DNA of 64,000 nucleotides, from assembly GCA_025057645.1 (NCBI GenBank), contig JANXBJ010000003.1, forward strand, positions 1 through 64,000. Reading direction: 5' to 3'. Of the stretch, positions 55,797 to 61,466 are shown one piece after another (positions within the stretch are counted from its first letter, which is position 1; each line of letters opens with the position of its first letter). The position numbers were made by a program, and so were the translations under genes. Below the pieces are notes generated by a model. That model was not told where the DNA came from, searched no databases, and saw only the letters and a list, made by a program, of their open reading frames with translations. The stretch is from Anaerolineales bacterium (GTDB lineage: Bacteria > Chloroflexota > Anaerolineae > Anaerolineales > UBA4823).

Positions 55797-57734
55797 TCAT
55801 TTGGGACGCTTTTGCAAGTTTTCCGGCTCAGCGGCGGGTAACACGACGGTAAACGTGGTACCTTCTCCTAAGGTAGACTCCACCCAGATGCGACCCTGAT
55901 GGTCTTCTACGATGGATTTGACGATCGTGAGGCCTAAGCCTGTCCCCCCAATGTCCTCGGGCAAGTTGCTTGCCCGATAAAACTTATCAAAGATATAGGG
56001 TTGCTCGGCCGGGGGAATTCCAATTCCCTTATCCCAGACCTGTAGAATCAATTGCCCACTCTGTGACCAGGTGCGGATGCCCAATTTTCCCCCTCTAGGG
56101 GTGTATTTGATGGCGTTGCTGAGTAAATTAGCGATCATTTGCTCCAGTCGCACCGGACTGCCCCAAACAAGGGGGGTGTCGGGCGAAATGTCGATTTCCA
56201 GTTGTTGATCTTTGGCGGTGGCCGAAGTTTGGTAGCTTCCGGCGACTTGGTGGAGCAGTGGTCGCAGGTCAATCAGCTCTTTGTGGGCGTCCATCCCGGC
56301 TTCGATGCGTCCGAGGTCTAGGAGATCTGCTATCAGGGCGGTGATTCCCCGTACGCTGGCCTGGACGCGCTTGATGAACTCTTGCTGTCGTTCATTTAGA
56401 GGACCTACCTTGGCGATCAACTCGGTGTAGCCTAAAATCGCAGTTAACGGCGAACGCAGATCGTGGGAAACTGCGCTGACAAATTCGGACTTGGCTCGGT
56501 CTAGCTCCTTTAGATGGGTTATATCGTGCAGGGTCACGACCAAGCCAACACCGGCAATGGAAGAGACCTGACAGTCCAGAATTCGACCATCCTCCAGACG
56601 GATTTCACCCCCTTTCATCCACCGCAAAGGGGGCTGTTTGAGCATCAAGACTAAGTCTGAGTTGAAGAGTACTTGGTCAACGGGCTTGCCGAGGTAGTCC
56701 TCCGCTTTGATGTTAAGGGCTTGGCGACAGGCTTCGTTGATGAGCAAGACGCGTTGTTCTTCATCGAGCACGATCACCCCGTCGCGCACGTGGGTGAGAA
56801 TCGCATATAGCTTTTGACGTTCCCGTTCGCTGGCTGTGTAGTACTTGGCATTTTGGATGGCAATTGCGGCGTAGTCCGCTAGCGTCTCCAGCAGCTTCTG
56901 GTGATAGTCCGAGAAAGTATGCACCCCCTCTCGATTATAGACGCCCAGAACGCCGATCGCTTTTTCCTGTATGAGCAAAGGAACGTAAATCAATGCGCGG
57001 ACGAGGAAGGCAGTCTTGATCTTTGTGAGTTCGCTTCCGCTTAGGTTGATCGCTCTCTTGGTGGCGATAACTTCCCCTAGCAAGGTATCGTACACGGGCA
57101 CGCACAGAAGGCTGGTTTTCCGATCCTCTACTGAGTGCGCTGCTCTCAGGAGCAAGTTTCCGCTTTCCTCCTCCAGAAGCATCAGGTTGCCTTCTTCGGC
57201 CCCCGTCAGTTCGACAGCTGCAACGACGACTTCCCTCAAAACTTGGTCGGTGCTTAGGGAGGCAGAGATCTTTCCCCCGATCCGATGTAGTCGTTCAAGA
57301 TCCTTGATATGGCGTTCGAGAGGTTGGGTATGACGTTTGCGATCCAGTCGTACCCATCTTTGCCAGCTCTCGTGTCGTGCAACGACACGGTGAATCGCCG
57401 CAAGAGCTTTTCTCGGAGCATCTTGGGCTGTGATCACGGCCTGGAAGCCCTCTTGGTATCGTTGGAGTGCTTCCTCGGTAGAGAGTGAGCTCGCATAGTA
57501 GATTAGCGGTAAGAGGGGAAAGTCCTCGGCCAACGAGTGCAAAATCTCGGCAGGAGCAGAGGAATCCACAATAAGGGCACTCGGCGAGCAGAGTTGGAAA
57601 TAGGCCTTTAGATCGGTTCCGGGGGACAGACGCTCGGCTTGATACCCGGCAGGTTGCAAAAAGCGCATAGTGAGCCAATCGGCAATCGAGTCGTCTTCGA
57701 TGAGTAAAGCGATGCGGTTCGTCGATGTCGCCAT
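55797..57734 (-). CDS. Receiver-like/GAF/PAS histidine kinase
   Basis: 645-aa soluble kinase. An N-terminal receiver-like domain (residues 8-120) keeps acidic residues (LLIEDD) and an Asp at position 57 but lacks the conserved Lys, so its phosphorylation is doubtful. GAF follows (about 160-305), PAS (315-425), HisKA with VSHDLRSPLTA, and HATPase with NLLSNAIKYTP, DKGIGIPP and GTGLGLTIVK. No transmembrane segment. It converges on the permease with a 13-bp gap and follows the pseudo-receiver GAF gene in the same direction after 23 nt, making a likely signalling pair. Confidence 0.9.
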   Translation of the reverse strand: MATSTNRIALLIEDDSIADWLTMRFLQPAGYQAERLSPGTDLKAYFQLCSPSALIVDSSAPAEILHSLAEDFPLLPLIYYASSLSTEEALQRYQEGFQAVITAQDAPRKALAAIHRVVARHESWQRWVRLDRKRHTQPLERHIKDLERLHRIGGKISASLSTDQVLREVVVAAVELTGAEEGNLMLLEEESGNLLLRAAHSVEDRKTSLLCVPVYDTLLGEVIATKRAINLSGSELTKIKTAFLVRALIYVPLLIQEKAIGVLGVYNREGVHTFSDYHQKLLETLADYAAIAIQNAKYYTASERERQKLYAILTHVRDGVIVLDEEQRVLLINEACRQALNIKAEDYLGKPVDQVLFNSDLVLMLKQPPLRWMKGGEIRLEDGRILDCQVSSIAGVGLVVTLHDITHLKELDRAKSEFVSAVSHDLRSPLTAILGYTELIAKVGPLNERQQEFIKRVQASVRGITALIADLLDLGRIEAGMDAHKELIDLRPLLHQVAGSYQTSATAKDQQLEIDISPDTPLVWGSPVRLEQMIANLLSNAIKYTPRGGKLGIRTWSQSGQLILQVWDKGIGIPPAEQPYIFDKFYRASNLPEDIGGTGLGLTIVKSIVEDHQGRIWVESTLGEGTTFTVVLPAAEPENLQKRPK

Positions 57735-57757
57735 AGGTTACCGTGTAGTGCGAGAAG

Positions 57758-58921
57758 TCAGCCTGAGTTGGTCTGTGGTTTTGTCGGTCTGCGCTCGGAG
57801 AGGGCTTCTTGAGCTTGAATAAGTTGCTCGCGCACCTGGAGCACGGATTGTTTTTGTCGAGCGGCGAGCATCTCGCCCTCTTCCGCCAAGAAAGTATCAA
57901 GGGTTATTTGGGCTGTTCGGATCCTCTGATAGGCCGAGGACAATCTGGATTGAAGACGTTGGTTTTGCTTCTCCTGTTGGGATTGAAAGAAACGTCTCTC
58001 AATTGTACGGATCAATTGCAAATTGACCAAAGCAATTGCTGCATAATCGGTGATTGCCTCGGCGAGCGATTGGACGTGGGGATCAAAAGGCTGCGCTTGT
58101 GTGCGCAACAAGATAAACATTCCTAAAACCTCGTTTTTGATCTTGAGAGGTACAATCAGTGCCGATTGTCCATACTTTGACAGGATAAAGGGCTTGAGTG
58201 GCTCGCCGTGAATGGCCAGAGGCACCCCCGACTCGGCGACAAGATAAGATACGCCGTCGTCCCAGTTTCTATTCAGCATTAGGCTGAACTCTGCGGGGAA
58301 GTGGAGAGCCGCACGCAACACGTAGTTTTGCCCTCGGTCGGTGCGTAAGACGACCAAGCCGCGGTCAGCATTGCTGAGAAGAACACAATTCTCCAGCGCT
58401 GTCTGGATAATTTTCTTGGGATCGGTGAGGACCGTGATTGACTTGCTGGCGTTGATTAGGCTGTTTAGATCATTGATCTTCTTCTCCAGCTCCTGATTAA
58501 GACGGGAGAGTTGGTCAACCAGCGCCTGACGCTCTTGGCGAATTCGCACCTGTTTTAGGGCTCGTTCGACAGTGGCGACAATTTCGGTTTCCTGAGCGGG
58601 CCAACTGAGAAAGTCGATTGCGCCGAGGCGGAAGGCTTGGAGAATATCTCCCTCTTTGGTCTCTTCGGCAAGCACAATGAAGGGGATCTCATAGCCCTGT
58701 GCTTGGACGGCAACCAAGAGGTCTTTGCCCGAAAGGCCGGGTAAGTTAAGGTTGGCGATAATCAGGTCGGGTTGAATTCGGCTGATCTCTTGCAGGGCGG
58801 CAGAGGCATGCAGGACAATATCCACTTGATAGCCTAAGGGACGAAGGGACTGCCGTGCAATTCGATCGCTGATAGCAGCGTTATCCTCGACAAGAAGAAT
58901 ACGCTCGCGGTGGGATTTCAT
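57758..58921 (-). CDS. Pseudo-receiver GAF protein with coiled coil
   Basis: 387 aa. Residues 6-125 have a CheY-like fold with the acidic pocket (LLVEDN), but the phospho-acceptor Asp is replaced by Asn57 in LIIANLNLPG and the conserved Lys by Trp (FLSWPAQ). This is a phosphorylation-independent receiver. A coiled coil (VDQLSRLNQELEKKINDLN) leads to a GAF domain (about 170-325) and a second C-terminal coiled coil. No output HTH or enzyme domain. ATG 58921 is preferred because MKSHRERILLVEDN is the natural N-terminus; the track adds 24 residues. It is likely an adaptor for the kinase downstream. Confidence 0.85.
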   Translation of the reverse strand: MKSHRERILLVEDNAAISDRIARQSLRPLGYQVDIVLHASAALQEISRIQPDLIIANLNLPGLSGKDLLVAVQAQGYEIPFIVLAEETKEGDILQAFRLGAIDFLSWPAQETEIVATVERALKQVRIRQERQALVDQLSRLNQELEKKINDLNSLINASKSITVLTDPKKIIQTALENCVLLSNADRGLVVLRTDRGQNYVLRAALHFPAEFSLMLNRNWDDGVSYLVAESGVPLAIHGEPLKPFILSKYGQSALIVPLKIKNEVLGMFILLRTQAQPFDPHVQSLAEAITDYAAIALVNLQLIRTIERRFFQSQQEKQNQRLQSRLSSAYQRIRTAQITLDTFLAEEGEMLAARQKQSVLQVREQLIQAQEALSERRPTKPQTNSG

Positions 58922-58923
58922 AC

Positions 58924-58929
58924 TATAAT
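58924..58929 (+). promoter_or_regulatory. Candidate -10 of the eRF1-like gene
   Basis: TATAAT directly adjacent to the divergent start codon. The -35 is poor. If used, the leader would be about 100 nt. It is placed so that transcription of the two divergent genes would interfere. Confidence 0.35.
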
Positions 58930-59037
58930 CATAGCATGGAAGTATTAAAACGGGAACGAAGTTCAAGTGAGGGGGGAGAGTTCCTGGTGTCAACGCTTCG
59001 CTCCCGGAACATCCCTTTAGCTACAGAGGAGGATGGC

Positions 59038-60138
59038 ATGCTAACCGACCGCGACTTGCGCGAGCTTTTGGATTTTCAAGCCCCGAATGCGGTAGTCAGC
59101 CTGTATTTGAACACTGATCCCTCTGAGGGCAATAAGGAAACTCACCGGCGGCATTTGCGTGCCTTGCTGCGTCAGGTGGAACTACCCTCAGACGTAGAAG
59201 TCATTGAACGGTATTTTGAGCACGAGTTTGATTGGGCGGGGCGCAGTGTGGCGGTTTTCTCTTGCGCTACTCGGGACTGGTTTCGCTCCTTCTCTTTGGC
59301 CGTTCCTCTGCGCAGTCGAGTGCGTGTAGGCGATCGCCCCCATGTTAAACCGCTAGCGGATTTATTGGATTCCTACGGAGGGTATGGAGTGGCTATAGTC
59401 GATAAACAGGGGGCGCGGTTCTTCTATTTTCACTTAGGTGAGTTAGTTGAGCAGGAAGGGGTAGTGGGAGAAATCGTTCGTCATACTAAGCGCGGCGGCG
59501 GTTCCCAAGCTGCCGGACGGCGGGGTGGAATAGCTGGGCAGACCAATTACATTGAAGAATTGGCCGAGCGAAACTTACGTGAAGCTGCGGAATACGCTGC
59601 GCGGTTCTTTGCAGAAAACAACGTGCGCCGCATCTTAATTGGTGGCACCGAGGAGAATGTCAATCTCTTTCGGGGTTTCCTTCCGAAAACCTGGCAGAGT
59701 CTGGTCGTTGGAACCTTCCCGATGAGCATGGCGGCTAGTCATACCGAAGTGTTGGAACGGGCGATGAAAATTGGGGAGGAAGCAGAAAGGCATCAAGAGA
59801 GCAGACGAGTTGAGGCTCTGATTACGGCGGCGGCGAAGGGAAAAAACGCTGTTTTAGGGTTAGAGGATACTCTGAACGCATTGAATGATGGACGCATTCA
59901 CACTCTTTTTATCCTCGAGGGCGATCGCCAACCGGGTTATCAGTGCGGGCAATGCGATTACCTAACTTCTGTAGAGGTGCCGAGATGTCCCTATTGTGGA
60001 GGCCAGGTCAAGAGCATTCCTGACATGGTCGAGCTTGCGGTGCGTCGGGTGATGCAAAATGGGGGAGAGGTAGAAGTTCTACGGCAGAATGAAGCTCTTG
60101 CCAAAAAGGGAAGAATTGGCGCTCTTTTGCGTTACTGA
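59038..60138 (+). CDS. Bacterial eRF1/Vms1-like protein (baeRF type) with zinc ribbon
   Basis: 366 aa. The middle is an RNase H-like eRF1 domain 2 with a Gly-rich loop GGGSQAAGRRGGIAGQ (residues 153-168), resembling the catalytic GGQ/GSQ loops of release factors and Vms1/VLRF1-type peptidyl-tRNA hydrolases. Domain 3 follows (RRILIGGTEENVNLF, later GLEDTLNALNDGRIHTLFI). A zinc ribbon with CxxC knuckles (CGQCDYLTS and CPYCGG) ends the protein. ATG 59038 has GAGGAGG at proper distance, so the 34 extra residues in the ORF track are dropped. Function as ribosome-rescue or tRNA hydrolase is inferred from family; no activity has been shown for this protein. Confidence 0.8.
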   Translation: MLTDRDLRELLDFQAPNAVVSLYLNTDPSEGNKETHRRHLRALLRQVELPSDVEVIERYFEHEFDWAGRSVAVFSCATRDWFRSFSLAVPLRSRVRVGDRPHVKPLADLLDSYGGYGVAIVDKQGARFFYFHLGELVEQEGVVGEIVRHTKRGGGSQAAGRRGGIAGQTNYIEELAERNLREAAEYAARFFAENNVRRILIGGTEENVNLFRGFLPKTWQSLVVGTFPMSMAASHTEVLERAMKIGEEAERHQESRRVEALITAAAKGKNAVLGLEDTLNALNDGRIHTLFILEGDRQPGYQCGQCDYLTSVEVPRCPYCGGQVKSIPDMVELAVRRVMQNGGEVEVLRQNEALAKKGRIGALLRY

Positions 60139-60211: not shown

Positions 60212-60679
60212 TTAGTGGGTTTGTTCCCCAAGGTATACCTGAATCCCCATTTGGGCGATCTGCTCAAGCTGAGCCTCGAGCCAGTCCAGGTGGTTCTCTT
60301 CGTCTTCGAGGATATCCTCCAGCAGTTCGCGCGTGCCCCCATCCTCCAGCTCAATAGCCTGCCGGATAGCATCGTTATACATTTTGACCGCTTCTGTCTC
60401 TGCCTCCTTGTCGTTGCGCAGTTGATCTTCTACAGTTGCCCCGATGTGAATCTTTCCTAGTTGGCTAACGATTGGCATTCCTTCGAGGAAGAGAATCCGG
60501 GCTATCAACTTCTCAGCATGGCGCATTTCGTCTATGGCGCGCTTCTCGTTTACTTCATGAAGCCTCTCGTAACGCCAATTGGCGCACATTTCAGAATGCA
60601 CCATATATTGGTTGATCGCGGCCAGTTCCTCAGCAAGCAGGGCATTCAAAGTCTCAATGATTTTTTCATTTCCTTTCAT
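60212..60679 (-). CDS. bfr: Bacterioferritin
   Basis: Heme-containing iron-storage ferritin forming 24-mers. 155 aa. Ferroxidase ligands are visible: E18, E51, H54, and the later E and H in DEENHLDW. M52, the inter-subunit heme ligand, is conserved in DEMRHAE. GGAGG precedes the ATG. A Fur-like sequence lies about 70-90 nt upstream. The adjacent Hsp20 gene is on the same strand, but with a terminator between, so bfr is monocistronic. Confidence 0.95.
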   Translation of the reverse strand: MKGNEKIIETLNALLAEELAAINQYMVHSEMCANWRYERLHEVNEKRAIDEMRHAEKLIARILFLEGMPIVSQLGKIHIGATVEDQLRNDKEAETEAVKMYNDAIRQAIELEDGGTRELLEDILEDEENHLDWLEAQLEQIAQMGIQVYLGEQTH

Positions 60680-60977: not shown

Positions 60978-61466
60978 TTAGTTCTTGCTTTTAATGTCGG
61001 AGACCTTGCCTTCGATCATCTTGGTCGCTTCACTCTTGACTGTGATGCGCTTCGGCCGGGCCTCCTCGGCTTTAGGCAGACGGATCTTCAATACCCCTGC
61101 TTCATAGCTGGCCTCAATCTCGTCTGCTTTCACTGTGCTGGGCAGGGTTAGGCTACGACAGAAGCTGCCATAGCGGCGTTCGCGGAGATGGTAGCGACCT
61201 TTCTTGCTTTCCTCTTCGGACTTGATCTCACCTTTGATGGTGAGTGTGTTGCCAGTATAAGTGATCTCGAGATCATCTGGATTCATCCCTGGCAGAGAGG
61301 CTTCCACAACATATTCGTCATCGTTTTCGACAACGTCAAGCGGCAACTCCCAGTCGAAGCCTGTGTCCACGTCCCAGCTAGCGAAAGCAGAGTCGAAGAG
61401 GCGATCCATCATGCTCCGGATGTTCATCAGTTCACGGAAGGGATCACGGCGCATAATTGGGAACAT
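60978..61466 (-). CDS. Hsp20-family small heat-shock protein
   Basis: ATP-independent holdase chaperone of 162 aa. The alpha-crystallin domain spans about residues 45-140 (LPLDVVENDDEYVVEASLPGM). It ends with EAGVLKIRLPKAEEARPKRI, the beta8-beta9 signature (GVLxIxxPK), followed by a short C-terminal extension. The N-terminal MRRDPFRELMNIRSMMDRLF is typical. No CIRCE or HAIR element is visible upstream. A possible promoter (TTTACT, 16 bp, TATTCT on the minus strand) lies about 75-100 nt before the ATG. Confidence 0.95.
   Translation of the reverse strand: MFPIMRRDPFRELMNIRSMMDRLFDSAFASWDVDTGFDWELPLDVVENDDEYVVEASLPGMNPDDLEITYTGNTLTIKGEIKSEEESKKGRYHLRERRYGSFCRSLTLPSTVKADEIEASYEAGVLKIRLPKAEEARPKRITVKSEATKMIEGKVSDIKSKN

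What the first reader, a model, noticed from the sequence alone, without database searches (positions are those of the whole stretch)
58921..60138. eRF1/Vms1-like bacterial protein divergent from a two-gene GAF signalling pair
The protein has a loop with GGGSQ and GGIAGQ, reminiscent of the GGQ of eRF1 and the GSQ of Vms1-like enzymes, plus a zinc ribbon. Bacterial members of this class are barely characterised. Start codons of the divergent genes are within about 120 bp and a TATAAT abuts the opposite ATG.
Basis: partly seen in the sequence, partly recalled or inferred. Interest (0 to 1): 0.55.

Follow-up and report, generated by a model that had tools for sequence, protein, structure and literature searches.

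The report
Balon-like ribosome factor, heat-shock setting
The gene encodes a bacterial cousin of the eukaryotic stop-codon release factor, of a family already described (baeRF family 10, relatives of the ribosome-hibernation protein Balon); the glutamine that would make it a release enzyme comes and goes among its close relatives and its relatives' genes sit with heat-shock chaperones, so it more likely parks or protects ribosomes under stress than cuts peptides free.

Summary
The gene starts at ATG 59038 (conserved AGGAGG; not 58936), is 366 aa, and has an aeRF1 middle domain, a Gly-rich loop with GGGSQ (Q157) and a Cys4 zinc ribbon. It is a baeRF family 10 protein (Pfam PF18854, 142 bits, cut-off 27); its predicted fold is closest to the hibernation factor Balon (8v9l, Foldseek E 2e-25), then aRF1/eRF1. 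The loop lies where the GGQ loop lies. The Gln is not conserved: 33 of 98 homologues carry it, 23 of 33 in the window's clade, with at least four losses there; at least six clade members have no loop Gln, while most flanking Gly/Ser/Arg are 88-100% kept. The second Gln (Q168) is worse. Homologues lie in an HspR-DnaJ-HtrA-[baeRF10]-Clp/Hsp20 context (59 of 66 loci), not with RQC genes; RqcH was not detected, while RF1, RF2, ArfB, tmRNA and HPF are present. Best reading: a Balon-like A-site occupant tied to the heat-shock response, whose Gly/Arg loop enters the peptidyl-transferase region; catalysis is unproven and probably not the core function. New member of a known kind. Function is inferred; nothing was tested in vitro.

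The parts
59038..60138 (+). baeRF family 10 protein, 366 aa plus stop; three domains (Balon-type N domain, aeRF1 middle domain, eRF1_3/Pelota-type C domain with zinc ribbon)
59027..59032 (+). AGGAGG ribosome-binding site, 5 bp before ATG 59038, conserved in homologues
59338..59775 (+). middle domain (PF18854 baeRF_family10)
59488..59541 (+). Gly/Arg-rich loop KRGGGSQAAGRRGGIAGQ (residues 151-168) at the position of the eRF1 GGQ loop; pLDDT below 50 in the model
59506..59508 (+). codon of Q157 (the Gln of GGGSQ), present in 33 of 98 homologues and 23 of 33 of the own clade
59944..59997 (+). Cys4 zinc ribbon (C303, C306, C317, C320) in the C domain; each Cys kept in 89-90 of 98 homologues
58951..59006 (+). 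inverted repeat CGGGAACGAAG-N34-CTTCGCTCCCG in the leader, kept with at most one change per arm in three congeners, single copy in the genome; role unknown
58924..58929 (+). TATAAT, conserved in three congeners; no -35 box found by consensus scan
57758..58921 (-). divergent response regulator with GAF domain (ATG at 58921)
55797..57734 (-). GAF-PAS histidine kinase, second gene of the divergent pair
60212..60679 (-). ferritin-like (bacterioferritin-type) gene, neighbour
60978..61466 (-). Hsp20 family gene (same cluster as PF00011 proteins of the relatives), neighbour

Best explanation
The protein is a three-domain, aeRF1-fold ribosome A-site factor of baeRF family 10 that works like Balon. Under heat or proteotoxic stress it is made with chaperones and proteases, enters the vacant A site, and places its Gly/Arg-rich middle-domain loop by the peptidyl-transferase centre. 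There it blocks or protects the ribosome (hibernation) rather than acting as an obligatory peptidyl-tRNA hydrolase. Shown here: family, domain order, loop position, variable Gln, conserved Gly/Ser/Arg scaffold, conserved zinc ribbon, heat-shock gene neighbourhood of homologues. Inferred: ribosome binding, A-site occupancy, stress induction, lack of essential catalysis.
For: Fold: the three best PDB matches are Balon structures (8v9l E 1.7e-25, TM 0.74; 8v9j TM 0.76; 8rdw), ahead of aRF1 4af1 (TM 0.52). Sequence: the Balon-family model NF052288 aligns over the whole protein (residues 36-400 of the longer reading) whereas the aRF1 model aligns only from residue 136 on, so the N domain resembles Balon's rather than the stop-codon-reading one; no NIKS is in the sequence. 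Loop: Q157 is average in conservation (44th percentile in the clade) while G153, G154, G163 are 100%, S156 94%, G160 97%, R162 91%; at least six clade members have no Gln in the loop and loop length varies. Variable loop length and missing Gln were the marks by which Burroughs and Aravind judged baeRF families inactive (PMC6514570). Neighbourhood: 59 of 66 loci carry DnaJ, HtrA, Clp, Hsp20 or an HspR-type MerR gene within 5 kb; HtrA is directly upstream in 28 and DnaJ in 12 (identities). Balon genes are reported in stress operons with Hsp20, DnaK, DnaJ (PMC10901736). The genome already has RF1, RF2, ArfB, tmRNA and HPF.
Against: The window's protein itself, and most of its clade (23/33), does carry GGxSQ, and family 10 is the baeRF family that the 2019 paper singled out as possibly active. 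The NCBIfam Balon equivalog cut-off is not met (96.7 against 480 bits). The Balon HP motif is not evident (K104-P105 where MSMEG_1130 has H-P in the alignment; P is kept in 86/98), and a zinc ribbon probably stands where Balon has its EF-Tu-binding hairpin (position not compared in detail). No HPF gene was seen nearby. In the window's own genus dnaJ and htrA are not adjacent; only hsp20 is close.
Confidence: 0.6

Rival explanations
1. A true release/rescue factor: in Gln-bearing members the GGGSQ loop hydrolyses peptidyl-tRNA on stalled ribosomes, as Vms1/ANKZF1 or eRF1 do, and HtrA/DnaJ/Clp then deal with the freed chain.
For: GGxSQ is the motif reported for aVLRF-1 and acVLRF-1, and family 10 is named as the baeRF family with a well-kept Gln. 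The deep outgroups carry GGWSQ at the same place. Chaperone/protease neighbours fit nascent-chain handling.
Against: Q157 is lost at least four times inside the window's clade without loss of the gene or of the loop scaffold. RqcH was not detected in the genome and does not co-occur with the gene in the class (77 both, 92 baeRF only, 74 RqcH only, 55 neither; odds ratio 0.62). RF1, RF2, ArfB and tmRNA are already there.
Confidence: 0.2
2. A Pelota/Dom34-like non-catalytic rescue factor: it binds stalled ribosomes with an empty A site and promotes their splitting or hand-over.
For: Same fold superfamily; non-catalytic middle loop; Burroughs and Aravind proposed either this or inhibition for baeRF proteins.
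Against: Pelota structures match far less well (best E 3.7e-10, TM 0.38) than Balon; no ABCE1 or Hbs1 partner was sought in this genome; the heat-shock neighbourhood and the Balon-type N domain fit hibernation at least as well.
Confidence: 0.15

Closest known systems
baeRF family 10 (Pfam PF18854; Burroughs and Aravind 2019, PMC6514570)
   Same: Middle-domain model matched at 142 bits (cut-off 27.1); three-domain architecture; GGxSQ in this protein and in deep outgroups
   Different: Here the loop is lengthened by a Gly/Arg stretch (RRGG) and the Gln is not maintained across the Anaerolineae members
Balon (MSMEG_1130, Rv2629, P. urativorans Balon; PMC10901736)
   Same: Best structural and best PDB sequence match; full-length alignment including the N domain; stress/heat-shock gene context
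   Different: Below NCBIfam equivalog cut-offs; Cys4 zinc ribbon in the C domain; HP motif not evident; carries GGGSQ; EF-Tu and bL27 contacts could not be tested
aRF1/eRF1
   Same: Middle and C domains alignable; loop at the GGQ position
   Different: No GGQ, no NIKS, N domain not matched by the aRF1 model; the bacterium has its own RF1 and RF2
Vms1/ANKZF1 and acVLRF1
   Same: GGxSQ-type loop motif
   Different: No match to the acVLRF1 model (PF18859) in the protein or the genome; [quoted passage not shown]

Membership tests
baeRF family 10 | match to PF18854 above the gathering cut-off | tested here: met
   141.8 bits against 27.1
baeRF family 10 | three-domain aeRF1-type architecture | tested here: met
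   full-length Foldseek matches to Balon and aRF1; eRF1_3 itself only a weak match, 21.1 bits against cut-off 25.8
baeRF family 10 | well-kept loop Gln reported for the family | tested here: inconclusive
   present in this protein, but only 33/98 homologues and 23/33 of the clade
Balon hibernation factor | NCBIfam equivalog cut-off (NF052288, NF052289, NF052287) | tested here: not met
   96.7/480, 61.3/320, 48.4/330 bits: a relative, not filed as an equivalog
Balon hibernation factor | Balon fold | tested here: met
   8v9l E 1.7e-25, 8v9j TM 0.76; predicted model, pTM 0.62
Balon hibernation factor | absence of the GGQ motif | tested here: inconclusive
   no GGQ, but GGGSQ present
Balon hibernation factor | HP motif of the N domain | tested here: inconclusive
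   K104-P105 at the aligned place; the motif's position was inferred from the alignment, not from the structure
Balon hibernation factor | binding to the ribosomal A site, bL27 trap, EF-Tu contact | not testable with these tools
   needs biochemistry or cryo-EM
classical aeRF1 | GGQ and NIKS motifs; TIGR03676 cut-off | tested here: not met
   neither motif in the sequence; 55.1 against 234.7 bits
VLRF1 / Vms1 | match to the acVLRF1 model | tested here: not met
   no PF18859 match in the protein at E up to 1 or in the genome
VLRF1 / Vms1 | GGxSQ/GxuQ loop with conserved Gln | tested here: not met
   motif present here, Gln not conserved among relatives

The most novel reading that the evidence does not exclude
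The release-type Gln was lost early in the Anaerolineae branch of family 10 and regained in the window's clade inside a longer Gly/Arg loop, so that a ribosome-parking protein became a heat-shock-coupled peptide-release factor again (a natural switch between hibernation and release in one gene family). The two-state likelihood reconstruction gives P(Gln) below 0.03 for the six nodes just ancestral to the clade and 0.95 at the clade's base; parsimony agrees unless a gain costs about four or more losses.
Probability: 0.12. Interest if true: 0.7.

Novelty: new member of a known kind. Interest (0 to 1): 0.35.

Why it matters
Family 10 was put forward as the bacterial eRF1-like family most likely to be catalytic. 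A large natural series in Anaerolineae, with and without the Gln in an otherwise constant loop scaffold, makes the question 'release enzyme or hibernation plug' directly testable by comparing orthologues. The HspR-DnaJ-HtrA-baeRF10-Clp linkage suggests that ribosome parking and protein quality control are switched on together in this class.

Tried and rejected
Vms1-like RQC role: no acVLRF1 match, no RqcH detected in the genome (95.75% complete, so absence is not certain), no positive co-occurrence with RqcH. Second Gln (GGIAGQ, Q168) as the catalytic one: replaced by K, R, L and others, 38th percentile. HAIR or CIRCE operators upstream: none near the gene. Sigma-70 promoter: none by consensus scan. 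Leader inverted repeat as a repeated regulatory element: single copy in the genome, and the window's leader folds only slightly better than shuffles (z -1.24). One call failed on wrong coordinates.

Full report
WHAT IS THERE. The open reading frame at 58936-60138 was confirmed. The true start is ATG 59038: an AGGAGG precedes it at 59027-59032 and the close homologues start at the same residue with a similar site. The protein is 366 aa. Residues below use this numbering (subtract 34 from the 400-aa reading). GGGSQ is residues 153-157, GGIAGQ 163-168, and the zinc ribbon C303/C306/C317/C320.

FAMILY AND FOLD. Pfam: PF18854 baeRF_family10, E 2.3e-41, 142 bits against a cut-off of 27; weaker baeRF 2 and 3; eRF1_3 sub-threshold. 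NCBIfam: Balon-type hibernation families and aRF1 are hit well below their equivalog cut-offs. The Balon model spans the whole protein, the aRF1 model only the middle and C domains. Against solved chains, Balon 8v9j is the best sequence match (E 1.4e-8), with aRF1 and plant eRF1 far behind. An AlphaFold2 model from a 40-sequence alignment has mean pLDDT 85 and pTM 0.62; the loop 151-168 is unstructured and lies between strand 135-143 and the long helix 166-193. Foldseek ranks Balon first (8v9l E 1.7e-25; 8v9j TM 0.76), then aRF1 4af1 and eRF1; Pelota is weaker. The loop is therefore where eRF1 has GGQ; this agrees with the sequence alignment of the loop with eRF1's RGGQSA region.

IS THE GLN CONSERVED? 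Homologues were gathered from relatives, class and phylum and from named contigs (Anaerolineales/Chloroflexi MAGs). The gene is in 182 of 298 sampled genomes of the class and single-copy in the window's genome. In an alignment of 98 distinct proteins, Gln stands at position 157 in 33, with A 34, S 20, G 6, T 4, R 1. Deep outgroups have a short loop QGGWSQANYQR; many Anaerolineae have QGGWAAxxYQR; others have GRGSS.. or GGGSA..GRRGG; the window's clade of 33 has a Gln at that place in 23. In that clade Q157 is 70% conserved, the 44th percentile of all columns; G153, G154, G163 are 100%, G160 97%, S156 94%, R162 91%, R161 88% (G155 is 73%). At least six clade members have no Gln in the loop. On a tree built without the loop columns (quick method, SH-aLRT only, 27 open forks), the Gln state changes at least 10 times, with at least four losses in the window's clade. 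A two-state likelihood model places Gln at the root (0.82), absent along the Anaerolineae stem, and present again at the base of the window's clade (0.95). Parsimony favours regain by one step up to a gain:loss cost of 3:1 and repeated loss from 5:1 on. Regain is thus suggested, not shown. Short-loop proteins (L139/L093, L054/L160) nest among long-loop ones, so loop length is also labile; in the 2019 analysis such lability marked the families judged inactive (PMC6514570).

NEIGHBOURHOOD. Stretches of up to 17 kb around 80 homologues were fetched and genes clustered. Directly upstream on the same strand there is often a DnaJ with J and C domains and an HtrA-type trypsin-PDZ protease; downstream often a ClpB/ClpC-type AAA+ protein; in some an HspR (NF047375, 105.3 against 105 bits) or a nearby Hsp20. 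Of 66 loci with at least 2.5 kb on both sides, 59 have one or more of these within 5 kb: DnaJ 36, HtrA 35, Clp 17, Hsp20 14, MerR/HspR 7. Related genomes are not independent, so these are counts, not a test. In the window's own genus dnaJ and htrA are absent from the spot, and the divergent GAF response regulator / histidine kinase pair abuts the gene; genes of that cluster lie near the gene in 20 of 66 loci. A bacterioferritin-like gene and an Hsp20 gene follow in the window. Balon genes are reported in stress operons with Hsp20, DnaK and DnaJ (PMC10901736), so the association is of a known kind; the particular HspR-DnaJ-HtrA-Clp set is what was seen here.

TRANSLATION GENES OF THE GENOME. 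RF1, RF2 and a 147-aa ArfB-like protein with GGQ and a basic tail, tmRNA and an HPF of 216 aa are present; RqcH and acVLRF1 were not found. Across the class the gene and RqcH do not go together (odds ratio 0.62, Fisher p 0.047, uncorrected for kinship; lists copied by hand with match thresholds of about 1e-20 for the baeRF gene and 1e-15 for RqcH).

READING. A Balon-like A-site occupant is the best-supported mechanism (0.6). In Balon a lasso-like loop wraps 23S A2602 and the catalytic centre stays inert (PMC10901736). A flexible Gly/Arg loop at the same place could do the same, with or without a Gln. Release by the Gln-bearing members (0.2) and a Pelota-like rescue role (0.15) remain open. None of these was tested experimentally.

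Noticed in passing
window 58951-59006 (+): Inverted repeat CGGGAACGAAG-N34-CTTCGCTCCCG in the leader; the arms are kept (at most one change per arm) in three congeners while the interior varies; single copy in the genome.
   Followed up: partly
L139/L093 and L054/L160: Short QGGW-type loops nested inside long-loop clades of the family 10 tree: loop exchange, convergent change or a tree error.
   Followed up: no
L040/L126: A family 10 homologue that has lost the zinc-ribbon cysteines and the loop Gln.
   Followed up: no
window 55797-58921 (-): The GAF histidine kinase / GAF response regulator pair is a recurrent divergent neighbour of the gene in this family (cluster present near 20 of 66 loci); signal unknown.
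   Followed up: partly
G002:C24:7376-8218, G005:C68:164-997: Distant second copies (22-24% identity) in two congeners, possibly another baeRF family.
   Followed up: no
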